Shown here piece after piece: positions 6,033 to 64,000 of a stretch of DNA of 64,000 nucleotides. Position numbers and translations under genes: made by a program. The notes under the pieces are model-generated. The model was given only the letters and a program-made list of their open reading frames with translations. It was not told the DNA's origin and searched no databases. The DNA comes from Hahella sp. CCB-MM4 (GTDB lineage Bacteria > Pseudomonadota > Gammaproteobacteria > Pseudomonadales > Oleiphilaceae). Numbering within the stretch: the stretch's first letter is position 1; every line of letters starts with the position of its first letter. The stretch covers positions 682,001 to 746,000 of the forward strand of contig NZ_MRYI01000002.1 in the NCBI RefSeq assembly GCF_002260525.1. The letters are read 5' to 3'.

Positions 6033-8074
6033 CAGCGCCATTTATTCCTCTGATCGATCTTGCCAGTGCTGCAGGAATCCTGCGTCCACTCGATCGCGCA
6101 CTGGGGCTGATGGTGGCTGATCTGGAAAGCGGACACCGTACCGAGGGACTGACTCAGGAAGAAAGGGGCCTCCTGGCGCTGACCACAGCCCAGGTTTCCC
6201 AAAGTCTGACTCAGGGGCATTTGTGTCTCGACCTGAGCCAACTGGCGGGAAAACCAATCTGGCCCGGCAATCAACGCTTGCAACAATGGTTGCAGGATAA
6301 TCACCATTCCTGGCCGGTTTGGCCGCCTCTGGAAAGTTGGCTGGACTTTCTACAGGGTTGTCGGCAAGTCGCTGAAGCTGGCTCCATATCTTCACCGGAC
6401 GACATCTCAGCAGTTGGACTGCTGTGTCTGGATGAACGTCACCGTCTGTATCTCAGTCGCTACTATGAAGCCGAGTTAGCCCTGGCGATCCACTTTAATC
6501 GACTTCAACAGACCCGTTGTGATCTGGACCAGGTCAAAGCCCGTGAACTGCTGCAGCGATACTTCGCGGATACCAATGGACAATTGGCAGCGGACAATCG
6601 ACAAGCCTTGGCCGCGTTATCCGCCTGCACCCACCATTTCTGCACAATTGTTGGTGGCCCGGGTACCGGAAAAACCACGACGGTTACCCGCATACTGGCG
6701 ATGCTGATGGAGCTTAACACTGCTCCACACCCTCTGCGGATGGCTCTATCTGCACCAACCGGCAAGGCAGCTGCCCGGCTGATGGAATCCATTGCCAAAG
6801 CCAGGAACCAATTGCCGGCTTCAGAGGAAATTAAAAACGGCATACCGGCGAATGCTTCCACACTTCACCGCTTGCTGAAGGTCCGCCCGGACGGAAAGGG
6901 GTTCCGCCACCACCGGGATAATCCTCTGGCTCTGGATCTGTTGCTGATAGACGAAGTTTCCATGGTGGACATCCAACTGATGCGCTCCGTCCTGGATGCC
7001 CTGCCACCTCACTGCCGGTTAATACTCCTCGGTGACAGCGACCAATTGGCTTCGGTAGAAGCCGGTAATGTTCTGGATGATATTTGTCGCCACCGGGAAT
7101 CCTTTGGCCTCAGTGATCATTTCATGACGTTCGCCGAAAGTCTGGGCCTCAGGCCGACACTGGGTACTGCGCATAATCCGCCACCGCTGACTGACCGCGT
7201 TATCCGACTGACACAGAGTTACCGCTTTACTGCCGACAGCGGCATCGGCCATCTCGCCAGATCAGTCAACGAAGGTCGTGCAGATGACGCCGTATCCATC
7301 CTTCTGGATCAACAATGGCCGGACGTCCACTGGCAGACGTTACCACCAGGGGAGCCGGTTCCGGTCGCTGTGCTCAAACCTGCGTTAGAGGCCTATCATG
7401 AATATCTGCAGTCAGGCACGGTCATTGAGGCTCTGAAGGCCTTTGACCGTTACCGAATCCTATGCGCCACCCGCGAAGGTTATTACGGCGTGGAAACGTT
7501 GAATCAACTGCTTGAGCAACATCTTCAGCGCAAGGGCTCCATTCCCCGCAATGTTACGGGCGCTCAAAGCCACTATCGGGGACGACCGGTGATGGTCACT
7601 CACAATGATTATCGAACCCAACTGTTTAACGGCGATATCGGCCTGATCTGGCCTGATGAACAGGACCGGTTAAAAGCCTGGTTTACCGATGACCAGGGCG
7701 AGGTGCGCTCCGTTCCCCTGTACCGTCTTCCCAGGCACGAAACCGTCTATGCGATGACCATTCATAAAAGTCAGGGCTCGGAATTCGAGCACTGTACTGT
7801 GCTAATGCCGGATCCGGAGCAATCACTGCTTACCCGGGAGTTACTGTATACCGGGATCACACGGGCTAAAAAGCAGGTCAGCCTGTGGGGTAACAAAGCC
7901 TCCCTGAGAGCGGCCGTTCATCGAAAAACCAATCGCATGTCCGGGTTGGCGGAACGCCTCTGGGGAAAAGCGGTGATTGCCGGGGCATCCTCCACTATTC
8001 TGCCACCAACCTCATCTTCCGGGGATAAAACTGACAAATCCGGTTCCTCCGGCGAGCAACTGAACCTCTGGTAG
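6029..8074 (+). CDS. recD: Exodeoxyribonuclease V subunit alpha RecD (5'-3' helicase)
   Basis: RecD, 681 residues, the 5'-3' superfamily 1B helicase of RecBCD. Walker A GGPGTGKTT is at residues 209-217; LLLIDEVSMVD is Walker B; LILLGDSDQLASVEAG, AMTIHKSQGSEFEH and LLYTGITRAKKQV are later helicase motifs. The start ATG overlaps the recB stop (ATGA). It is somewhat longer than E. coli RecD (608), with a low-complexity Ser/Gly/Asp tail before the stop. It is the last gene of the operon; the next gene is about 150 nt downstream. Confidence 0.96.
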   Translation: MTAPFIPLIDLASAAGILRPLDRALGLMVADLESGHRTEGLTQEERGLLALTTAQVSQSLTQGHLCLDLSQLAGKPIWPGNQRLQQWLQDNHHSWPVWPPLESWLDFLQGCRQVAEAGSISSPDDISAVGLLCLDERHRLYLSRYYEAELALAIHFNRLQQTRCDLDQVKARELLQRYFADTNGQLAADNRQALAALSACTHHFCTIVGGPGTGKTTTVTRILAMLMELNTAPHPLRMALSAPTGKAAARLMESIAKARNQLPASEEIKNGIPANASTLHRLLKVRPDGKGFRHHRDNPLALDLLLIDEVSMVDIQLMRSVLDALPPHCRLILLGDSDQLASVEAGNVLDDICRHRESFGLSDHFMTFAESLGLRPTLGTAHNPPPLTDRVIRLTQSYRFTADSGIGHLARSVNEGRADDAVSILLDQQWPDVHWQTLPPGEPVPVAVLKPALEAYHEYLQSGTVIEALKAFDRYRILCATREGYYGVETLNQLLEQHLQRKGSIPRNVTGAQSHYRGRPVMVTHNDYRTQLFNGDIGLIWPDEQDRLKAWFTDDQGEVRSVPLYRLPRHETVYAMTIHKSQGSEFEHCTVLMPDPEQSLLTRELLYTGITRAKKQVSLWGNKASLRAAVHRKTNRMSGLAERLWGKAVIAGASSTILPPTSSSGDKTDKSGSSGEQLNLW

Positions 8075-8227
8075 CCCCTTCGTTTCATCAAAAAACTCTC
8101 CATATCCGTGTATTCACTGACGTGGAAATTCACTATGGGCAAATTTTAACCAGATTCTAATCTTAATATGACAGTTCATGATTTTTCATGGCTGTCCACA
8201 ATTGAACCCGCTGTAACCGAGGTATCT

Positions 8228-8998
8228 ATGAGTCCTGTCAAACACTGTCTGCCAGTGCGCCAACTGGCATGTCTGATGACATTTATCGCGACCTTTTTTT
8301 TCACGGTATCGGCTCTTTCGGAGGATAAATTCAATCTGGTCACAGAGAATTTCCCACCGTTCAATATGAGCCTTCAGGACAATAAGTTTGAGCACAAGGA
8401 CGAGAATATCCACGGTATCAACACCGATATTGTTAAAGAGTTGTTCAGACGCGCCGGTTACGACTATCGCCTGAAACTCAGAAACTGGAACTATGCCTAC
8501 AACTTCGCCCAGCGGAAAGCTTTTCGGGGAGTATTCGGCACCACCTATACCGAGGCGAGAAAACCCCTCTTTAAATGGGTCGGCCCCCTGGCCACCAATG
8601 ACTGGGTACTCTTCGCCAAAAAGAATTCCAGTATCAAGCTGAAAAAAATCGAAGATGCTCACCCATATATCATCGGATGCTACAAGAATGATTCACGCGC
8701 CCAGTTCCTTAAACAGAACGGGTATAACGCGTCGGAACTGGAAGATGACAGCCTGAATCCCAAGCGATTGGATGAAGGCCAGGTGGATTTATGGATAACC
8801 AGCACCTCCTCTGGCCTTTACTACGCCATGCAGGCCGGCATTAATACCATTGAGCCGGTGTTCACGATCAAAGAAACCCAACTATATCTGGCGATGAACC
8901 TGGACACACCGGATCAGGACATCAGTCGCCTGAACACCGTGTTAAGTGGTATGCGTGACGATGGAACCGTTGAACGCATCCTCTCGTTATATCGCTAG
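8228..8998 (+). CDS. Periplasmic substrate-binding protein, family 3 (amino-acid-type)
   Basis: 256-residue secreted protein of the bacterial extracellular solute-binding protein family 3. An N-terminal signal peptide is visible: basic start, then a hydrophobic stretch (LACLMTFIATFFFTVSALS) with cleavage after ALS. The mature part starts with FNLVTENFPPFNMS, the typical beginning of these domains, and has the NTDIVKELFRRAGYDYRLKL segment. The ATG at 8228 is chosen over an upstream ATG at 8168 because GAGGT lies 5 nt before it and it puts the signal peptide at the N-terminus. No ABC permease or ATPase is adjacent. In this family orphan members are often sensory or of unknown role; a ligand cannot be read from the sequence. 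Confidence 0.85.
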   Translation: MSPVKHCLPVRQLACLMTFIATFFFTVSALSEDKFNLVTENFPPFNMSLQDNKFEHKDENIHGINTDIVKELFRRAGYDYRLKLRNWNYAYNFAQRKAFRGVFGTTYTEARKPLFKWVGPLATNDWVLFAKKNSSIKLKKIEDAHPYIIGCYKNDSRAQFLKQNGYNASELEDDSLNPKRLDEGQVDLWITSTSSGLYYAMQAGINTIEPVFTIKETQLYLAMNLDTPDQDISRLNTVLSGMRDDGTVERILSLYR

Positions 8999-9061
8999 CT
9001 TTTTGTGTACCGAAAGCTGCTTGTATACCGAGAGCTGTTTGCATACCGAAAGCTGAATTTC
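8988..9061. repeat. Degenerate 18-nt tandem repeat at the 3' end of the binding-protein gene
   Basis: Units: 8988-9007 (TATATCGCTAGC...), 9008-9025 (TACCGAAAGCTGCTTGTA), 9026-9043 (TACCGAGAGCTGTTTGCA) and 9044-9061 (TACCGAAAGCTGAATTTC). A further diverged copy starts at about 9069 (TATCGATAGCTGCTATC). The first unit contains the last two codons and the TAG stop of the upstream gene, so the repeat appears to have grown out of the gene end. No function is evident. Confidence 0.85.
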
Positions 9062-9261
9062 AAATCCTGTATCGATAGCTGCTATCGAGTATAGCGATCT
9101 CTACGGCGGGGCCATCTGGTCCCGCCGTCTTCAGCTCCCTTATCCCGCCCGGAATTTCAATGAGCCCGGATATATCGACTATGCTGATATAAGTATCCAT
9201 CCGCCACCTTAGCCATATGTGGATCAGCCCCTGACATGTCGGTATATACAAGGACTTAATC

Positions 9262-11232
9262 TTGCGGAAATATCTGGTTGCCTGCAGTATTTTTATCTTT
9301 GTGACAGGGATCGTTGAACTGATTCTGTTTCAGGAGATTCGCCGCCAGGAACTGATCCAGCACCGGAACACTCTCAGCCAGGCAGGGGAAATTCGCGGCA
9401 TTCTACAGTCCGAACTGAACGCCACACTGCACTTGGCCACCGGGCTGGTTTCCTACATTCAGGCCAACAAAGGCATCATCAAGCCTGACGACTTGTCTTT
9501 CTGGCTTGAGAGTCTGATCCGCCAGGGCAAATACATCCGCAACATCGGCCTGGCACCAGGCAATCGCCTGACCTACATATATCCATTGGAGGGCAATGAG
9601 GCCGCGCTAGGTTTGTACTACCCCGACCTGCCTCAGCAATGGCCCGCAGTGGAGAGAACCATCAAGGAACGTCAGGCCAAGCTGGCCGGTCCAATTGAGC
9701 TTGTTCAGGGTGGTAATGGGTTGATCTACCGGGTTCCCGTGTTTCTGGAATACGATCAATACTGGGGACTGGTCAGTACCGTCATTAATGCAGACCATCT
9801 GTATGATGTCGTCAGGGAAACCGCCGCCGAGCTACAGTTGGGAGTTATTCTCAAGCGAGACACCGACATCGGCACCCAGACTTTTTTCAAAACGGGCGAC
9901 TACCCTTCGCGGGCTAAATCCAGCCTGACCATACAGCTTCCAGGAGCCGTCTGGACCATGGACGCTTTCCCTCTTGGCATTGTGTCAGCCGAACAACATT
10001 ACCGGGCACTGCGCATCTGGGGAGCCATCGGCTCATTCCTGATCTCCCTGTTGGTGTACTCATTCCTGAGTGCCAGGGAAAAACATATCCGGGTGGAAAA
10101 AGATAAACAGCATGTGGAAACACGTTTCACCAGCGCCTTTGAAATGGCACCTATCGGGATGGTGATCGTTGATCATGAACTGAGAATCGAGTCCGCCAAT
10201 GCGGCATTTCACCACATGATTAAATGTGAGCCGGGAACACTCATCGATAAGCCCATCATGAAACTGATCTCCCCTGCATTTCTCAACAAGACTCTGGCAG
10301 AGCTCAATGCCTCCCTGAGTCAGGAACGGGGACCCCAGTCCTGGGAAATGACTCTCTCCAATATTGATGGAGAACCAGTCGATATCATGTTTCACATGGC
10401 CGGTCTGCAGGGAAAGACCAAAGGCAGCAGGAAATTGCTGCTACAGATTCACGATATAAGAGAGCGTAAACGGCTCGAGCGCATGAAGAATCAGTTTGTT
10501 TCCACTGTGAGCCATGAGTTACGCACGCCCATCACCTCAGTCAGCGGTTCCCTGTCACTTCTCGCCAAGACTGACATCCTTGATACTGATCCCAACCGCG
10601 CCCGAGACTTGATCGGCATTGCCATCAGGAACAGTAAGCGTCTTCAATTACTCATCAACGACCTGTTGGACATGGAGAAAATATCCGCAGGAATGCTCAG
10701 CCTGAAAATTCGCCGACTTGATCCTTCCGATGTGTTAAAGCAAGCCGTCGAAACCCTGCAGCCATTTGCAGACCAATACAAAATAACGATCGAATCGAAA
10801 CTGCCTGAGCAATCCCTGCATATTGAAGCGGACGATTCCCGCCTGCTTCAGGTATTGGCTAACTTCCTGTCAAATGCCATAAAGTTTTCCTGTGAAGGCG
10901 GCACTGTGACCGTTGCCCTGGAGACTATCGAACAGCACGCCAGACTATCCGTCATCGACCACGGTCCCGGCATCACAGAAGGTTTTCGGGAGCGTATTTT
11001 CAACCGATTTTCCCAGGCTGACAGTTCCGATAGCCGCATCAAAGGCGGTACTGGGCTGGGCCTTGCAATCTCCAAAGACCTGGTTGAAAAAATGGGAGGG
11101 ACCATCGGGTTCGAATCTGAGCCCAATGTTGAAACACGCTTCTACGCGGAGTTCCCCTTATCTACTGAACCTTACTCATCCGATGATTTCCCTTTATCCA
11201 CCGAATACTCTTCACCAGACGGACTCTCTTGA
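9262..11232 (+). CDS. CHASE-PAS sensor histidine kinase
   Basis: 656-residue membrane sensor kinase. Order: transmembrane helix (about 4-23); periplasmic CHASE-like sensor domain (about 45-235, with LASGL/TGLVSYIQANKGI and LVQGGNGLIYRVPVF); second transmembrane helix (about 252-270); PAS domain (about 285-400); HisKA with phospho-acceptor His418 in VSHELRTPI; HATPase with NAIKF, DHGPGI and GGTGLGLAI. The start is TTG at 9262, preceded by AGGA at 9251. It has no receiver domain and no adjacent response regulator, so it is an orphan kinase. The last 25 residues are an imperfect 12-residue duplication (FPLSTEPYSSDD / FPLSTEYSSPDG) with no counterpart in the family. Confidence 0.9.
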   Translation: MRKYLVACSIFIFVTGIVELILFQEIRRQELIQHRNTLSQAGEIRGILQSELNATLHLATGLVSYIQANKGIIKPDDLSFWLESLIRQGKYIRNIGLAPGNRLTYIYPLEGNEAALGLYYPDLPQQWPAVERTIKERQAKLAGPIELVQGGNGLIYRVPVFLEYDQYWGLVSTVINADHLYDVVRETAAELQLGVILKRDTDIGTQTFFKTGDYPSRAKSSLTIQLPGAVWTMDAFPLGIVSAEQHYRALRIWGAIGSFLISLLVYSFLSAREKHIRVEKDKQHVETRFTSAFEMAPIGMVIVDHELRIESANAAFHHMIKCEPGTLIDKPIMKLISPAFLNKTLAELNASLSQERGPQSWEMTLSNIDGEPVDIMFHMAGLQGKTKGSRKLLLQIHDIRERKRLERMKNQFVSTVSHELRTPITSVSGSLSLLAKTDILDTDPNRARDLIGIAIRNSKRLQLLINDLLDMEKISAGMLSLKIRRLDPSDVLKQAVETLQPFADQYKITIESKLPEQSLHIEADDSRLLQVLANFLSNAIKFSCEGGTVTVALETIEQHARLSVIDHGPGITEGFRERIFNRFSQADSSDSRIKGGTGLGLAISKDLVEKMGGTIGFESEPNVETRFYAEFPLSTEPYSSDDFPLSTEYSSPDGLS

Positions 11233-59253: not shown

Positions 59254-59277
59254 CCTCCGGGCTAACCGGCCCGGAGG
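59254..59277 (+). terminator. Terminator after doeC
   Basis: CCTCCGGGC, TAACCG loop, GCCCGGAGG, followed by GTTTCC: 9 perfect GC-rich pairs. It overlaps the last codons of the minus-strand nucleotidyltransferase gene. Confidence 0.6.
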
Positions 59278-60083
59278 GTTTCCAAGAACAGCTGATCGAA
59301 GCAGCTTTCAGCCAACGGTTCTGCTTTCTTGACCTGCATCTGCTCCAATTCGGCCAATAGATTGAACAGAAAGTCGTCGATAACCCCGACTCGGGGTATC
59401 GAACACTTTTCCGCTGATATCACTTTCAGGTGCAGCAGTTCGTCGATAGCGACACGAACGTTCTTACACGAGACCGTTCCTTCCACTAGTTTCCCAAAAG
59501 GAACAGGAGGCATGGCCGAAAGCTCTGGGTCTGACGTCCACAATGCACACAATGCTGTCCTTAGTATGTAAAAGTAACGCTTCAACGGTGATTCTTCGGC
59601 TGCCTGTAACTTACGCCAATCGTGTCTGGCCATCGAGCTGTAATGATGAAACAACGCTCTGCGATCCAGACTCTTGAGTGCCAGTTGCCGCAACCTGTGA
59701 AGGAACAGCTCGTCCATCCGGTACACCACAGGTGAATGCAGCCACTCAAGCAAAGTGGGGTTACTTTTGCGCATCAGCAAAAGTGCTTTGCGCAGGTCCC
59801 AACCATTGACATCCAGCTCATCCACGATAGGCTCTTCAATCACATCACGTTGGCGGCTGATCGATAAATACCGGGTTTCCGGATGCACGTAGATGAACCG
59901 CACATCATAGTCACTGTTGGGTGAGGCGAATCCCCAGGCACGGCTTCCTGATTCACAGGCGTAGAGAATGTCCACGCCGTGCTCCCATTCTATCCGCTCC
60001 AATGATTCCAGTATTCTGTTATCCATTGTCTTAGCCCTACTGCTCATTTCACTTATTAACTCGTCACTCTGGGCAAGCATCAT
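59262..60083 (-). CDS. YcgL/RlaP-type nucleotidyltransferase
   Basis: 273 residues. Polymerase-beta-fold nucleotidyltransferase: GSRAWGFASPNSDYDVRF gives the GS...DxD core (about residues 46-63). This group (COG3541, YcgL, called RlaP when linked to RNA ligases) is predicted to add nucleotides or process RNA ends. It is 5 nt after the slipin gene, so the two form an operon under the predicted sigma54 promoter. The start ATG at 60083 is used; ATG at 60026 fits the family start and has AGGG upstream. Activity is inferred from fold and context. Confidence 0.8.
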   Translation of the reverse strand: MMLAQSDELISEMSSRAKTMDNRILESLERIEWEHGVDILYACESGSRAWGFASPNSDYDVRFIYVHPETRYLSISRQRDVIEEPIVDELDVNGWDLRKALLLMRKSNPTLLEWLHSPVVYRMDELFLHRLRQLALKSLDRRALFHHYSSMARHDWRKLQAAEESPLKRYFYILRTALCALWTSDPELSAMPPVPFGKLVEGTVSCKNVRVAIDELLHLKVISAEKCSIPRVGVIDDFLFNLLAELEQMQVKKAEPLAESCFDQLFLETLRAG

Positions 60084-60088
60084 GGTGA

Positions 60089-61279
60089 CTACCTGCCAGA
60101 GTTATCCATTGTCTGGGCGCTTTTTCCATTCATGGCTTTCCCAGACATCGCTTTCCCTGTAATGGTAACCAGATCATTCATCAATCCTTCCAGTCCTCCG
60201 TATACCGTCAGATGACCGATGCGATCCGCGACTTTTTCCAACGCCTCAAGTTCCTTCAAGCGCAGTAACACAGGATTTCCTTCCATCATTTTGGCTGTGT
60301 TATGCAAAGATCTAGTCGCTGCCGTTTCTTCTCGACGGCGGATCAGATTCGCTTCTGCCGTTTTCTGAGCCTGTACCACTTGGTTCAGGATTTCCTTCAT
60401 CTCTCCAGGCAGGATGATGTCTTTGACACCCACCTGTTCCAGTTCAAAGCCCATCTCCAGAAGCGGCTCAGCGACCGCCTTGCTGATGGATTTAGCGATG
60501 GCGTTTTTATCTGCCAAAAGCTCATCCAGGGTACGTGTACCAATCGCTTCTCTTAATGCCAGCTGTAAGCGGCGGTAAACATAGTCACCAGGATTCTTCA
60601 CCTTTGAAACCGCTGCAACGGCATCCTTGAAGCGATAGGCGGCATTCAGGTTAAGGCGCAGGCTCACACGATCCTTGGTGAGAATTTCCTGTCCAGACAC
60701 TTCCACACTTTGCCACTTCATTTCAATAACCTGGGTGGTCAATTCACGATTGAATGTCCAGTATCCGTAGCGGCCTGCTTTCAGGGTTTCTTTCAGCTCA
60801 CCATCCACGTACAGCAACCCTACTGACTGGTCAGGAACCGTGATTTTTACCCAGGCTCTGCGATTACCGACGGTATCCAGGCCCAGACGGTCCAATTGAG
60901 ACAATAACGTGGACGTTAACCGATATTGCTCAGCGATATTGATCATCTCCACCGTCACATCGGTCGCGGTTTTCCAGGTCACCAACCTGGCTCCAGGTTC
61001 CAAAAGGCTTTTGATCTGCCCATCCCGACGAACAATCCCCACTTCATCCTGGCCGACCATGATCACGTCAACTTCATTGCGAAAGGTTTCGAGGGTCAGC
61101 AACACATCCAGTTTTGAGTGCTGAACTGCCACATCTTTCAGCGAAAAGGTTTCCGCCTGATAGCGCTTGTTGGCTCCCCAAAAACGATAGCGTCCGGCGC
61201 TTAATACCTGGACCAGATGGCGGTCCCGGTACAACAAAACTTTTTCATCATCAGCTACATCGATTTTTTGCCAAAACAT
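60089..61279 (-). CDS. Slipin (SPFH/band-7) protein of the RtcR operon
   Basis: 396 residues, SPFH/band-7 domain (about 150-325), with a duplicated N-terminal beta region (AGRYRFWG and AGRYGYWT). No strong N-terminal membrane helix is seen, unlike YbbK-type slipins. The VGVKDIILPGEMKEILNQVVQAQKTAEANLIRRREETAATRS stretch is the typical coiled-coil end of the domain. Slipins with this layout recur in RtcR-regulated RNA-repair loci. GGAGAAG precedes the ATG. The C-terminus ends in a 5-residue repeat GKAMS/GKAMN/GKSAQ (60113-60157, 15-nt period). Confidence 0.85.
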   Translation of the reverse strand: MFWQKIDVADDEKVLLYRDRHLVQVLSAGRYRFWGANKRYQAETFSLKDVAVQHSKLDVLLTLETFRNEVDVIMVGQDEVGIVRRDGQIKSLLEPGARLVTWKTATDVTVEMINIAEQYRLTSTLLSQLDRLGLDTVGNRRAWVKITVPDQSVGLLYVDGELKETLKAGRYGYWTFNRELTTQVIEMKWQSVEVSGQEILTKDRVSLRLNLNAAYRFKDAVAAVSKVKNPGDYVYRRLQLALREAIGTRTLDELLADKNAIAKSISKAVAEPLLEMGFELEQVGVKDIILPGEMKEILNQVVQAQKTAEANLIRRREETAATRSLHNTAKMMEGNPVLLRLKELEALEKVADRIGHLTVYGGLEGLMNDLVTITGKAMSGKAMNGKSAQTMDNSGR

Positions 61280-61386
61280 CTTACTTCTCCTTGGCTGTCC
61301 TAATTACATTCTTCTGTCCCAATAACACCTGAGCTGCCTGATATGCAGCACTGCTGTTTAAGGACCTGCGAGGGGAGACTGGTTTA

Positions 61387-61454
61387 CCTGCCAGGGACAT
61401 GACCAATTCACCCTGAATTCAATCCTTCCCTGGTTTGAACATGTCACGGGCAGG
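61387..61454 (-). ncRNA. Long imperfect hairpin in the slipin leader
   Basis: CCTGCC (61387-61392) and GACATG (61396-61401) pair with CATGTC (61440-61445) and GGCAGG (61449-61454), with a symmetric 3-nt internal loop and a 38-nt apical region in which ACCA and TGGT also pair. It lies about 110 nt upstream of the slipin start. Closed-stem-with-large-loop geometry recalls Y RNAs, but no Ro protein gene is present. Confidence 0.4.
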
Positions 61455-61535
61455 CGCCCACAATCTCTCGACTCACAGGTTTTGTATGCCTGATTCCTGC
61501 CGACAGCCTGACTGACAGAAATCTTCATACCGGTT

Positions 61536-61549
61536 TGGGCCGAAGCCCA
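61536..61549 (-). ncRNA. UUCG-tetraloop hairpin
   Basis: On the minus strand: TGGGC, TTCG, GCCCA, a very stable hairpin directly after the tRNA-3'-half-like element. No T-tract follows. It could protect or define the 3' end of the processed RNA. Confidence 0.5.
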
Positions 61550-61555
61550 CTTTCA

Positions 61556-61590
61556 TGTTAAGAGAGGAGTCGAACCTCAACCTTTCGGTT
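61556..61590 (-). ncRNA. tRNA-3'-half-like element beside the tRNA
   Basis: On the minus strand: AACC-GAAA-GGTT (GNRA hairpin), then GAGG-TTCGACT-CCTC (a T-arm with four pairs and a canonical loop), then TCTTAACA. The order T-arm plus 7-8-nt acceptor-like strand copies the end of the neighbouring tRNA (T-arm then TCAAACA). No D-arm or anticodon arm is present, so it is a tRNA remnant or a mimic. Confidence 0.45.
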
Positions 61591-61595
61591 TACCG

Positions 61596-61671
61596 TGGCT
61601 GTTTGAGTGGGATTCGAACCCACTACCAATTGATTCTCAGTCAACTGCTCTACCCGATGAGCTATCAAACA
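61596..61671 (-). tRNA. Type I tRNA with GAG anticodon and encoded CCA
   Basis: 76-nt complete cloverleaf on the minus strand. Acceptor TGTTTGA / TCAAACA (7 perfect pairs), linker TA, D-stem GCTC/GAGC with loop ATCGGGTA, anticodon stem GTTGA/TCAAT with loop CTGAGAA (anticodon GAG), 5-nt variable loop TGGTA, T-arm GTGGG-TTCGAAT-CCCAC, discriminator G, CCA. GAG reads leucine CUC/CUU, yet bacterial leucine tRNAs have a long variable arm and discriminator A, both absent here. It is therefore not a normal tRNA-Leu. It lies in the predicted leader of the slipin operon, transcribed with it from the sigma54-type promoter. Confidence 0.85.
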
Positions 61672-61745
61672 CATGAATGTCCCGGATGTCCGTTTCGGCG
61701 CACCCAGCGGCTCTGTCGGTACATCCCAACCCAGCGGGAGGATGC

Positions 61746-61771
61746 CAGCCTGATCTTCAGAATCAGCGCTG
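61746..61771 (-). ncRNA. Hairpin just after the predicted sigma54 start
   Basis: CAGC and CTGAT pair with ATCAG and GCTG (9 pairs, one bulged base) around a 7-nt loop. It falls within the first 50 nt of the predicted transcript. An arm of this size resembles an anticodon arm, but no cloverleaf surrounds it. Confidence 0.4.
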
Positions 61772-61800
61772 CTGCCAGATACCACATTCCCTTTTTCTAT

Positions 61801-61817
61801 TTCATGGTGCGTGCCAA
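61801..61817 (-). promoter_or_regulatory. Candidate sigma54 (-24/-12) promoter of the slipin operon
   Basis: On the minus strand: TTGGCACG, four bases, ATGAA. The -24 half is a perfect match to TTGGCACG; the -12 half has TG but lacks the C of TTGCA. It is positioned between rtcR and the tRNA, as expected for a promoter activated by RtcR, which is a sigma54 enhancer-binding protein. Predicted start near 61790. Confidence 0.6.
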
Positions 61818-61898
61818 TTGTCTGAAGTTATTCAAAGAAAATATTTATCTATTTGATTTATATGACTTTATTAAACAAAGGCTGTAATAAACATACAT

Positions 61899-61927
61899 TT
61901 GACCCAAGCCCGACACCTATCGATAAT
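61899..61927 (+). promoter_or_regulatory. Sigma70 promoter of rtcR
   Basis: TTGACC (61899-61904), 17-nt spacer, GATAAT (61922-61927). The predicted start near 61934 gives a 30-nt leader before the ATG at 61964. It also argues against a start for rtcR at 61853. Confidence 0.7.
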
Positions 61928-61963
61928 GATCAAATTCAATCACCAGTTATCTTTTTGGATCAT

Positions 61964-63553
61964 ATGAAAACAGTTGTGATAGGCCTGCTCGGCACGGTAA
62001 TGGACAAACGCGGAAAAGGCGTTAAAAGATGGAATTCCTGGCGCCCCACGATAGGCATATTTATGCAGGATGATCTGCTGGTCGATCGGGTAGAGCTCCT
62101 GCATGACGATCGGGATGAACGTCTGGCTAACAATGTGGGGGCTGACATTGAATCCCTTTCGCCGGACACTGAGGTTGGCCTGCATCGCATCAAGTTCAAA
62201 GATCCGTGGGATTTCGAACATGTGTACAGCACACTGTTGGATTTTGTCGAACGCTATCCGTTCAAGCCGGAGGAAGAGCGCTACCTGATCCATATCACCA
62301 CCGGAACACACGTGGCACAGATCTGTTGGTTCCTATTATGCGAAGCCAACTATATTCCGGGAGCTCTACTGCAGACATCTCCGGGGCGGGGAGATAAGTC
62401 CGTTGCCGGCAACTATCATATTATCGATCTGGACCTTTCCAAATATGACGCTATCAGCTCCCGCTTTAAGCGCCAGCAACTGGAAGGCACCGAATTCCTG
62501 AAATCCGGTATTGCCACTCGAAATAGTCGTTTCAACAGCATGATTCAGCAGATCGAAAGGGTGGCCATTCGCTCCCCTGCACCGATTCTAATTACCGGCC
62601 CAACAGGAGCTGGCAAGTCCCAATTGGCAAGGAAGATCTATGAACTGAAAAATATGCGTGGGCTGGTTCAGGGGGAGTTCGTCGCCGTGAATTGCGCCAC
62701 ATTACGGGGAGACAGTGCCATGTCAGCGCTGTTCGGCCATAGTCGTGGCGCTTTTACAGGCGCACAAAGTGCCCGCAAAGGCCTGCTGACAAAAGCCCAT
62801 CAGGGACTCCTGTTTCTGGATGAGATCGGAGAGCTCGGTCTTGACGAACAAGCCATGCTGCTTCACGCCATCGAAGAAAAAACCTTTTATCCCGTTGGTT
62901 CCGACAACCCTGTTCTCAGCGATTTTCAGCTGATCGCCGGCACTAATCGAGACCTGCAAAAGCAGGTTCAGGAAGGCAGTTTTCGTGAAGACCTTTTGGC
63001 CCGCATCAATCTCTGGAGTTACCAGCTTCCCGGCCTGAAAGACCGCAGAGAAGACATCGAACCCAACCTGGAATTCGAACTACAGAAAGCAGAGCAGCAA
63101 TTGAGTCACAAAGTCAGTTTCAATAAGACGGCAAGAGAGCGGTTTCTGGCTTTTGCCAATCAACCGGATTCCTTATGGTCGGGTAATTTCCGCGACCTCA
63201 ATGCGGCGGTACAACGCATGGCAACACTGTCTGACGGCGGCCGTATCAATGAAACCACCGTAAAGGAAGAATGCGAACGCCTGCAACGGTTCTGGCACCA
63301 TACCCAGGCGGCCGGTTCGCTGCCCGCTTTAGAGGAAGTATTAAGCGGAGAACAGATAGAGGACATCGATCTGTTTGACCAGTACCAACTACGCCAGGTT
63401 ATCGCCATCTGCCGGGACAGCCGCACAATGTCCGATGCAGGGCGCCAACTGTTTAACCGCTCAAGGTTAAAGAAGAGCTCCAGCAATGACTCACACAGGC
63501 TACGTCAATACCTGACCAAGTTCGGGTTGAGCTTTGAAGATTTGCAGGATTGA
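61964..63553 (+). CDS. rtcR: RNA repair transcriptional activator RtcR
   Basis: 529 residues. N-terminal CARF sensor domain (about 1-180, with LIHITTGTHVAQICWFLL and NYHIIDLDLSKYDAI as in E. coli RtcR), AAA+ domain (about 185-430: GPTGAGKS at 212-219, GAFTGA at 262-267 that contacts sigma54, LLFLDEIGELGLDEQAML) and a C-terminal DNA-binding region. RtcR is activated by RNA ends or tRNA fragments in the systems studied and turns on RNA-repair operons. Here its target is the divergent tRNA-slipin-nucleotidyltransferase operon; no rtcA or rtcB is adjacent. The start at 61964 fits the family and the promoter. Confidence 0.95.
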   Translation: MKTVVIGLLGTVMDKRGKGVKRWNSWRPTIGIFMQDDLLVDRVELLHDDRDERLANNVGADIESLSPDTEVGLHRIKFKDPWDFEHVYSTLLDFVERYPFKPEEERYLIHITTGTHVAQICWFLLCEANYIPGALLQTSPGRGDKSVAGNYHIIDLDLSKYDAISSRFKRQQLEGTEFLKSGIATRNSRFNSMIQQIERVAIRSPAPILITGPTGAGKSQLARKIYELKNMRGLVQGEFVAVNCATLRGDSAMSALFGHSRGAFTGAQSARKGLLTKAHQGLLFLDEIGELGLDEQAMLLHAIEEKTFYPVGSDNPVLSDFQLIAGTNRDLQKQVQEGSFREDLLARINLWSYQLPGLKDRREDIEPNLEFELQKAEQQLSHKVSFNKTARERFLAFANQPDSLWSGNFRDLNAAVQRMATLSDGGRINETTVKEECERLQRFWHHTQAAGSLPALEEVLSGEQIEDIDLFDQYQLRQVIAICRDSRTMSDAGRQLFNRSRLKKSSSNDSHRLRQYLTKFGLSFEDLQD

Positions 63554-63716
63554 TTCTTGTGCACCGGGCTCCCTGAAAGTGAAACACCGTCTCACCATCA
63601 TGGCCTTTTCGTAATTTGTCACAGCCATGCAACCTTTTAGAATGCTCAAAAAGCATCCAGATTCAATGGATGACGATATCAGCAATATTTTGGGGCAACT
63701 ATTTTTGAGGAAAGCT

Positions 63717-64000
63717 ATGCAACAGTGGATTCAAAAACTCTGGCGGGAAAATAAAACGTTTCTGGCTTTCATCATGCTCATGTTTGTGTTTCGCAGCGCG
63801 GTAGCCGACTGGAATGAAGTTCCCACTGGCTCGATGAAGCCCACCATCGTGGAAGGTGACAGGATCTGGGTGAATAAGATGGCTTACGATATCCGCGTTC
63901 CGTTTACCCATATCTCTCTGTATAAACTGGCCGATCCGGAGCGGGGAGATATCGTGATATTTGACTCAGAGGTGTCGGATAAACGTCTGGTCAAGAGAGT
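63717..64000 (+). CDS. lepB: Signal peptidase I LepB, 3' end missing
   Basis: First 94 codons of signal peptidase I, which cleaves signal peptides at the inner membrane. ATG at 63717 with GAGG 6 nt upstream. One membrane helix (FLAFIMLMFVFRSAVA), then the catalytic Ser in PTGSMKPTIVEGDRIWVNK and the GDIVIFDSEVSDKRLVKR region leading to the catalytic Lys. The frame is open to base 64000. It is short at the N-terminus compared with E. coli LepB, as in many marine genera. Confidence 0.92.
   Translation, partial: MQQWIQKLWRENKTFLAFIMLMFVFRSAVADWNEVPTGSMKPTIVEGDRIWVNKMAYDIRVPFTHISLYKLADPERGDIVIFDSEVSDKRLVKR

What the first reader, a model, noticed from the sequence alone, without database searches (positions are those of the whole stretch)
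59262..63553. RtcR-controlled locus with tRNA, slipin and nucleotidyltransferase but no RtcB/RtcA
Seen: rtcR faces a sigma54-type promoter, then a complete tRNA, other RNA hairpins, a slipin gene and a YcgL/RlaP-type nucleotidyltransferase 5 nt after it. Known: RtcR is a CARF-AAA+ sigma54 activator that senses damaged RNA and classically drives rtcBA; slipin and RlaP-type genes have been noted in related RNA-repair neighbourhoods. Inferred: an RNA-end sensing system whose output makes its own tRNA-like RNA plus an end-modifying enzyme, with the slipin as a membrane or scaffold partner. The lack of ligase and cyclase nearby suggests a repair or decoy chemistry different from RtcA/RtcB.
Basis: partly seen in the sequence, partly recalled or inferred. 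Interest (0 to 1): 0.85.

Follow-up and report, generated by a model that had tools for sequence, protein, structure and literature searches.

The report
RNA-repair locus with non-decoding tRNA mimic
This is an ordinary bacterial RNA-repair gene cluster whose ligase and cyclase lie just past the edge of the window, but the tRNA beside its slipin gene appears to be a tRNA look-alike whose anticodon changes freely, and sister regulators in the same genus face whole sets of spare tRNA genes.

Summary
The parts are real: RlaP, slipin, a tRNA-shaped RNA and RtcR, with a sigma54-like site between. The headline claim, no RtcB/RtcA, is wrong: rtcB starts about 1.1 kb and rtcA about 2.4 kb beyond the window edge, downstream of rtcR. 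The order is conserved: 65 of 88 related slipin loci have an ARAGORN tRNA within 700 nt 5' of slipin, and 84 of 88 have a T-arm motif there. That RNA is probably not a decoding tRNA. It shows free anticodons (GAG in the window, TTT on nearly the same body in a sister species), A34 anticodons (13 of 65, against 0 of 108 other tRNAs in the loci), few encoded CCA ends (11 of 65 against 93 of 108) and, in six Burkholderiales loci, a GNRA tetraloop instead of an anticodon loop. A slipin-linked tRNA-like RNA in RNA-repair loci was, as I recall, already reported (Burroughs and Aravind 2016; not readable here). A second point, for which ten searches of an open library gave no printed account: other RtcR copies in this genus face arrays of 3-10 ordinary-looking spare tRNAs and no RtcB.

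The parts
59262..60083 (-). RlaP, pol-beta-type nucleotidyltransferase (273 aa)
   Evidence: PF10127 E 3.7e-81; GS...SDYD signature
60089..61279 (-). slipin (SPFH/Band-7) protein, 396 aa, no evident membrane helix
   Evidence: PF01145 E 1.5e-31; AF2 model mean pLDDT 82: three five-strand beta modules, SPFH domain, long helix; hydropathy
61564..61578 (-). second T-arm-like hairpin just after the tRNA mimic
   Evidence: motif scan; 66 of 88 slipin loci have two or more T-arm motifs upstream of slipin, tandem tRNA-likes included
61596..61671 (-). tRNA-shaped RNA, anticodon GAG, short (5-nt) variable region, G73, CCA encoded; read here as a non-decoding tRNA mimic
61801..61816 (-). sigma54-type -24/-12 site facing the tRNA-like/slipin/RlaP operon
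   Evidence: TGGCACGCACCATGAA, 12 of 15 weighted score, p=0.115 alone; position matches relatives
61964..63553 (+). rtcR, CARF-AAA+ sigma54 activator (529 aa from ATG)
   Evidence: NF038308 813 bits, PF06956 276 bits; GPTGAGKS and GAFTGA present
63627..64000 (+). start of a signal-peptidase-like (lepB) ORF that runs off the window; orf137, rtcB and rtcA follow outside the window (C74:746693, 747096, 748365)
   Evidence: L013; the name lepB is my reading of the sequence, no family search was run on it

Best explanation
The locus is one arm of an RtcR RNA-repair island. [quoted passage not shown] The RNA would not decode: it keeps the tRNA elbow (D and T arms) and overall fold but not the anticodon. 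Most likely it is a structural RNA partner of the slipin, in the way Y RNA partners Ro60, helping to recognise, hold or compete for tRNA-shaped molecules while RtcA/RtcB/RlaP mend their ends. Shown by sequence: gene identity, order and its conservation, the sigma54-like sites, the freed anticodon, co-occurrence with repair genes. Inferred: induction by RNA damage here, binding of RNA to slipin, and the scaffold role.
For: Conserved placing: 65 of 88 slipin loci have an ARAGORN tRNA within 700 nt 5' of slipin, 84 of 88 a T-arm motif (0.18 expected from shuffles); in a further order sample 24 of 29 slipin loci have one within 725 nt (some are the same species as in the 88). Non-decoding: A34 other than ACG in 13 of 65 nearest RNAs and 7 of 25 further copies in the same 700 nt, 0 of 108 other tRNAs; T33 in 33 of 56 against 102 of 106; CCA 11 of 65 against 93 of 108. 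Anticodon loop differs in 88 of 218 positions against 180 of 1976 in the body over 31 close pairs that share no member. Six loci have a GNRA tetraloop on the anticodon arm; the two of them tested still match the Rfam tRNA model. RNA plus slipin without RtcR, RtcB, RtcA or RlaP detected in 16 of 56 well-flanked loci. Sigma54 site before rtcR facing the divergent gene at p<0.05 in 65 of 82 loci. Anabaena TrcR controls rtcB, a slipin gene and a tRNA operon together (PMC10272220, passages).
Against: No binding or expression data for this organism. The window's own sigma54 site is weak (p=0.115), and 17 of 82 loci have no site at p<0.05. 13 of the 16 solo slipin loci show no sigma54 site at p<=0.05 before the RNA, so RtcR control is not universal. 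22 of 88 slipin loci have no ARAGORN tRNA within 1.5 kb; in the E. coli and Citrobacter stretches read only a T-arm is recognisable. The triplet changes faster than other loops only when more distant pairs are included. Body gaps are ignored, ARAGORN misplaces some loops, some pairs may not be orthologous, and a few of the 65 (L087, L155, L160) look misparsed or like other tRNAs but were kept in the counts.
Confidence: 0.55

Rival explanations
1. Decoy: the RNA is made in bulk after tRNA damage and occupies anticodon nucleases; anticodon variety reflects the local nucleases.
For: Triplet is the fastest-changing part in the wider pair sets (27 pairs, p 2.7e-5 against D plus variable loops); seven species of one genus share nearly the same body with differing loops; tandem copies carry different anticodons (L078, L203). 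[quoted passage not shown]
Against: Six Burkholderiales loci have a GNRA tetraloop in place of an anticodon loop, so no anticodon can be offered, though a non-cleavable competitor remains possible. In the closest pairs the triplet is not significantly faster than D plus variable loops (8 pairs p=0.17; 12 pairs p=0.21), and D and variable loops also vary among the seven species. No PrrC/RloC-type (PF13166) match in the own genome; other nuclease families were not searched.
Confidence: 0.25
2. Sensor bait: nucleases cut the RNA and its 5' half with cyclic phosphate feeds RtcR, amplifying the alarm.
For: [quoted passage not shown] the RNA is the first recognisable product of the RtcR-facing operon in the window.
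Against: GNRA-capped versions and stand-alone slipin loci without RtcR nearby; PMC7790460 did not detect fragments of the comparable YrlA RNA (passage).
Confidence: 0.08
3. A real tRNA-Leu(GAG) that happens to sit in the operon.
For: Full cloverleaf, CCA encoded, Rfam tRNA 69.3 bits.
Against: Short variable region and G73, unlike bacterial tRNA-Leu (recalled identity rules); a separate 86-nt tRNA-Leu(GAG) with a long variable arm exists in the genome (L249); the sister species has TTT on nearly the same body.
Confidence: 0.04

Closest known systems
RtcR-RtcB-RtcA RNA-repair operon (E. coli, Salmonella rsr-yrlBA-rtcBA)
   Same: RtcR over the NF038308 cut-off; rtcB and rtcA adjacent; sigma54-type sites
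   Different: rtcBA lie downstream of rtcR on the same strand, with a lepB-like ORF and a small ORF between; the divergent operon holds the tRNA-like RNA, slipin and RlaP; no TROVE/Ro60 match in the genome
SPFH/Band-7 module with a tRNA-like RNA and RlaP in RNA-repair systems (Burroughs and Aravind 2016; recalled, not held)
   Same: slipin, RlaP, Rtc genes and a tRNA-like RNA
Y RNA / YrlA with Ro60
   Same: non-coding RNA with a tRNA-like fold in an RNA-repair operon
   Different: neighbouring protein is a slipin, not a TROVE protein; the window RNA is a complete cloverleaf
Anabaena TrcR regulon (PMC10272220)
   Same: rtcB, a slipin gene and a tRNA operon under one regulator (passages)
   Different: a repressor, no RtcR; tRNA operon on a megaplasmid
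PaFlo8 of Pseudomonas aeruginosa (PMC13086221)
   Same: SPFH gene inside the rtc locus
   Different: the term 'tRNA' does not occur in the main text of that paper

Membership tests
RtcR (NF038308) | score over curated cut-off 650 and RtcR N-terminal domain | tested here: met
   813 bits; PF06956 275.9 bits
RtcR (NF038308) | Walker A and GAFTGA loop of a sigma54 activator | tested here: met
RtcR-RtcBA operon | rtcB and rtcA adjacent to rtcR | tested here: met
   C74:747096-748310 and 748365-749363
RtcR-RtcBA operon | sigma54 site before rtcBA and induction through RtcR | tested here: inconclusive
   site of score 12.5 of 15 about 80 nt before orf137 (L013:8611); induction not testable
RlaP (PF10127) | family score and nucleotidyltransferase signature | tested here: met
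   272.9 bits, GSRAWGFASPNSDYD
slipin/SPFH | Band-7 domain | tested here: met
   110.3 bits; stomatin first in Foldseek
slipin/SPFH | membrane segment of the classical stomatins (recalled) | tested here: not met
   highest 19-residue hydropathy mean 0.94 in the window protein
translation tRNA (tRNA-Leu) | anticodon conserved between orthologues | tested here: not met
   GAG against TTT; 31 pairs
translation tRNA (tRNA-Leu) | long variable arm and A73 (recalled rule) | tested here: not met
   5-nt variable region, G73; the genome's other Leu(GAG) gene has the long arm
translation tRNA (tRNA-Leu) | charged with leucine | not testable with these tools
   needs an acid gel or charging assay
Band-7-linked tRNA-like RNA (Burroughs and Aravind 2016) | tRNA-like RNA beside a Band-7 gene in an RNA-repair locus | tested here: met
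   for the adjacency; the definition is recalled, paper not held
Y RNA with Ro60 | a TROVE protein in the genome | tested here: not met
   no PF05731 match in G000
vault (MVP) protein | MVP-type repeats | tested here: inconclusive
   full-length model aligns to MVP over about 400 columns at E about 1e-11, but the N-terminal modules alone reach only E 0.12 and the MVP shoulder model hits 4 of 38 members, best E 0.022

The most novel reading that the evidence does not exclude
RtcR is a general alarm for broken tRNA with three kinds of answer: mend (RtcB, RtcA, RlaP), replace (foreign spare tRNA sets facing RtcR copies in this genus, no ligase there) and mimic (a slipin particle built on a non-decoding tRNA mimic, perhaps a small cytoplasmic cage distantly like the vault). 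The spare tRNAs keep their anticodons but differ from the housekeeping set in the anticodon stem, which could let them escape the nuclease that broke the originals.
Probability: 0.35. Interest if true: 0.8.

Novelty: new variant of a known kind. Interest (0 to 1): 0.6.

Why it matters
If right, bacteria facing tRNA-cutting toxins or phage-triggered nucleases do more than mend: RtcR copies would turn on replacement tRNA sets. The slipin-linked RNA is a natural tRNA mimic whose anticodon has been released from decoding, in places swapped for a tetraloop, which makes the role of the tRNA elbow in RNA repair directly testable. E. coli offers a handle: in 1617 of 5426 complete genomes one place covers at least 80% of a leader-slipin-RlaP stretch; the sigma54 site was checked in one E. 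coli stretch of these (L166).

Tried and rejected
Absence of RtcB/RtcA: rejected, they lie past the window edge.

Membrane slipin: not supported.

Leader hairpins as a special RNA: no better than shuffles.

Diversifying selection on the anticodon as proven: rejected. With the closest pairs the triplet is not significantly faster than D plus variable loops; relaxed constraint may explain most of it.

PrrC/RloC nuclease in the own genome as the reason for the anticodon: no PF13166 match.

Vault kinship as established: not accepted. The N-terminal modules alone gave no hit at E 0.001 or better and the profile search with them listed no vault sequence.

E. coli as a population test of the anticodon: not possible, ARAGORN finds no tRNA in the stretches read, and single-sequence folds of the E. 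coli and Citrobacter leaders were not clearly better than shuffles (24 and 107 of 200 as good).

Phages: no slipin match. Plasmid collection: 47 records, 8 covering at least 80% of the query; three were read.

Rows dropped before counts: identical tRNA-likes collapsed 92 to 79; region-wise pairs used 77 of 79 or 65 of 79 with regular loops and parsable arms; loop columns use 56 of 65 regular loops; one RtcR match at a contig start was not among the 20 stretches and was fetched later (L085); matches in three genomes (G058 and G179 below the cut-off, G095 a fragment) were not mapped; one locus (L164) whose tRNA lies 1.36 kb away counts as without although one search lists it.
Full report
What is there. 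The four features are real. RlaP (59262-60083, minus) and a slipin (60089-61279, minus) are 5 nt apart; a tRNA-shaped RNA (61596-61671, minus) lies about 316 nt before the slipin start; rtcR (ATG 61964 to 63553, plus) faces away. RtcR passes the NCBIfam cut-off (813 against 650 bits) and carries GPTGAGKS and GAFTGA. RlaP scores 272.9 bits against PF10127.

The absence of RtcB and RtcA is a window artefact. The window is G000:C74:682001-746000. RtcB is the ORF C74:747096-748310 and RtcA C74:748365-749363, on the same strand as rtcR; a lepB-like ORF and a 137-codon ORF lie between rtcR and rtcB. A sigma54-like site (12.5 of 15) sits about 80 nt before the 137-codon ORF. A second RtcB lies at C74:500980-502092. 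So this is a complete RtcR-RtcB-RtcA-RlaP island.

The order is conserved. With eight loci from the RtcR survey that makes 88. In 65 of 88 an ARAGORN tRNA lies on the same strand within 700 nt before slipin. In 84 of 88 a T-arm motif is there, against 0.18 expected from shuffles; 68 of 88 have the D-arm motif. In a further sample of one order, 24 of 29 slipin loci have such a tRNA within 725 nt; some of these are the same species as in the 88. Of 56 named loci with at least 6 kb on both sides, 45 have the RNA, 37 RtcR, 40 RtcB, 26 RtcA and 20 RlaP; 16 have none of the other four, and all 16 have the RNA. RNA plus slipin is therefore the smallest unit seen.

The RNA is probably not a translation tRNA. 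Among the 65, the anticodon starts with A (ACG excepted) in 13, and in 7 of 25 further tRNA-likes in the same 700 nt; among 108 other tRNAs in the same loci, 0. Irregular anticodon loops: 9 of 65 against 2 of 108. T33: 33 of 56 regular loops against 102 of 106. CCA encoded: 11 of 65 against 93 of 108. A few of the 65 (L087, L155, L160) look misparsed or like other tRNAs; they were kept. In the window RNA the variable region has 5 nt and position 73 is G, unlike bacterial tRNA-Leu (recalled), and the genome has a separate 86-nt tRNA-Leu(GAG) with a long variable arm.

The anticodon is free. The RNA of the window (GAG) and of sister genome G006 (TTT) differ at 7 of 75 aligned positions, 3 of them in the anticodon loop. 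In the same two genomes nine array tRNAs present in both keep 9 of 9 anticodons, with 0 of 63 loop and 31 of 641 body differences. Seven species of one unnamed genus share nearly the same body with differing loops; D and variable loops vary there too. Over 31 close pairs that share no member the loop differs at 88 of 218 positions and the body at 180 of 1976. The control was 12 pairs of other tRNAs: loop 15 of 84, body 81 of 792; the eight control pairs with the same anticodon differ at 1 of 56 loop positions. Pairs were chosen by body similarity, so some may not be orthologous. I tested whether this exceeds the rate of other loops. The anticodon triplet against D plus variable loops gives p=0.17 (8 closest pairs), 0.21 (12), 0.022 (17), 0.006 (19) and 2.7e-5 (27); an earlier version with 11 pairs gave p=0.21 for the whole loop. 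Freedom from decoding is well supported; active diversification is not proven.

In six Burkholderiales loci (L104, L121, L131, L135, L142, L152; L104 and L121 have the same arm) the loop is a GAAA or GCAA tetraloop on a short stem (sequences, folds). The Rfam tRNA model still scores the two tested, L104 and L131, at 35.9 and 31.9 bits against a gathering score of 29. The elbow is kept and the anticodon is dispensable, which favours a structural or competing role over a cleavable bait.

Control. In 82 RtcR loci I scored the best sigma54-type site in the region before rtcR, facing away: 65 have p<0.05 and 50 p<=0.01 against a rough dinucleotide-block shuffle, and in 67 the best site lies 120-230 nt from the rtcR start. 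The loci are not independent. The window's own site is weak (p=0.115), and four same-genus rtcR-rtcB loci without a tRNA-like (L039, L040, L042, L043) have none. Of 16 solo slipin loci, only L144, L149 and, at p=0.05, L095 have such a site before the RNA, so RtcR control is not universal.

Spare tRNA arrays. RtcR (PF06956) was found over the cut-off in 12 of 58 related genomes and 13 of 369 of the class. The second RtcR of the own genome (C45) faces ten tRNA genes: Tyr, Ser, Met, Lys, Asn, Cys, Arg, Leu, Gln, His. Of 35 RtcR loci mapped (23 from the own and related genomes, 12 from the class sample), 13 have divergent tRNAs within 6 kb, 10 have three or more, and 8 of those have no RtcB in the stretch. 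All 8 are from the window's genus, in six genomes. The array tRNAs in nine such stretches look functional: 0 of 49 with A34, 46 of 49 with CCA, 49 of 49 with T33. Each of the ten in the own genome is only 62-76% identical to the nearest housekeeping tRNA gathered with the same anticodon, with a different anticodon stem. Sigma54 sites at p<=0.01 face seven of the eight arrays (L048, L050, L051, L052, L054, L055, L057); for L012 p=0.10. Against a simple reading: in L012 a terminator-like hairpin lies between the site and the array (three such hairpins in the stretch, 1.7 expected), in L049 the array is about 7 kb away, and L053 has none. Seven of 56 named slipin loci also hold at least three further tRNAs on the slipin strand.

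The slipin. No segment of the window protein looks like a membrane helix. The AF2 model (mean pLDDT 82, pTM 0.60) has three five-strand modules, an SPFH domain and a long helix. Foldseek ranks stomatin first; major vault protein aligns over about 400 columns at E about 1e-11. The three modules alone (pLDDT 94.8) reach vault only at E 0.12, so vault kinship is a lead only.

Literature. I saw the abstract and passages of PMC7790460 (Salmonella RtcR and tRNA fragments; RtcA needed), the start of the abstract and passages of PMC9650030 (RtcAB needed for RtcR activation), and passages of PMC10272220, PMC11090510 (CoCoNuTs with RtcR homologues), PMC13086221 (PaFlo8 in the rtc locus) and PMC7652931. 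None of what I saw describes the slipin-linked RNA or RtcR-facing tRNA arrays. From memory, Burroughs and Aravind (NAR 2016) named Band-7 modules with a tRNA-like RNA and a new nucleotidyltransferase in RNA-repair systems; it is not held. I therefore treat the slipin-RNA-RlaP unit as known in kind, and the anticodon data, the tetraloop caps and the RtcR-facing arrays as possibly new.

Verdict. An ordinary, complete RNA-repair island with a known-in-kind but unusual RNA, next to a more surprising pattern in the same genus: RtcR copies that seem to call up replacement tRNAs. Everything about function is inferred from sequence.

Noticed in passing
L012 (G000:C45:38000-57000), rtcR2 at 8050-9678, tRNAs 6477-7418: A second RtcR in the same genome faces a ten-tRNA array; sister genome G006 has nine of the ten, with the same anticodons.
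   Followed up: partly
L048, L050, L052, L054 and L049, L051, L053, L055: Two further RtcR types in the genus; one faces Met-Cys-Glu tRNAs about 90 nt after a strong sigma54 site, the other Ser-Ser-Asp-Leu-Trp-Gln tRNAs about 700 nt from rtcR in L051 and L055, about 7 kb away in L049, none in L053.
   Followed up: partly
L166:5466-7925 and E. coli genomes: A leader-slipin-RlaP stretch, beside lysC in the record read, is covered at 80% or more in 1617 of 5426 complete E. coli genomes; L166 has a strong sigma54 site and a T-arm, and no rtcR is annotated in the stretch read.
   Followed up: partly
L095, L102, L107, L111, L112, L118, L119, L129, L143-L145, L147, L149, L150, L154, L160: Slipin with a tRNA-like RNA but no RtcR, RtcB, RtcA or RlaP detected in the stretch held.
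   Followed up: partly
window 60089-61279: Slipin model aligns full length with major vault protein, but its N-terminal modules alone do not reach significance.
   Followed up: partly
window 63627-64000 and L013:7628-8383: A lepB-like signal peptidase ORF lies between rtcR and rtcB here but not in sister locus L041.
   Followed up: no
   Followed up: no
G000:C74:500980-502092: A second RtcB gene in the genome, away from rtcR.
   Followed up: no
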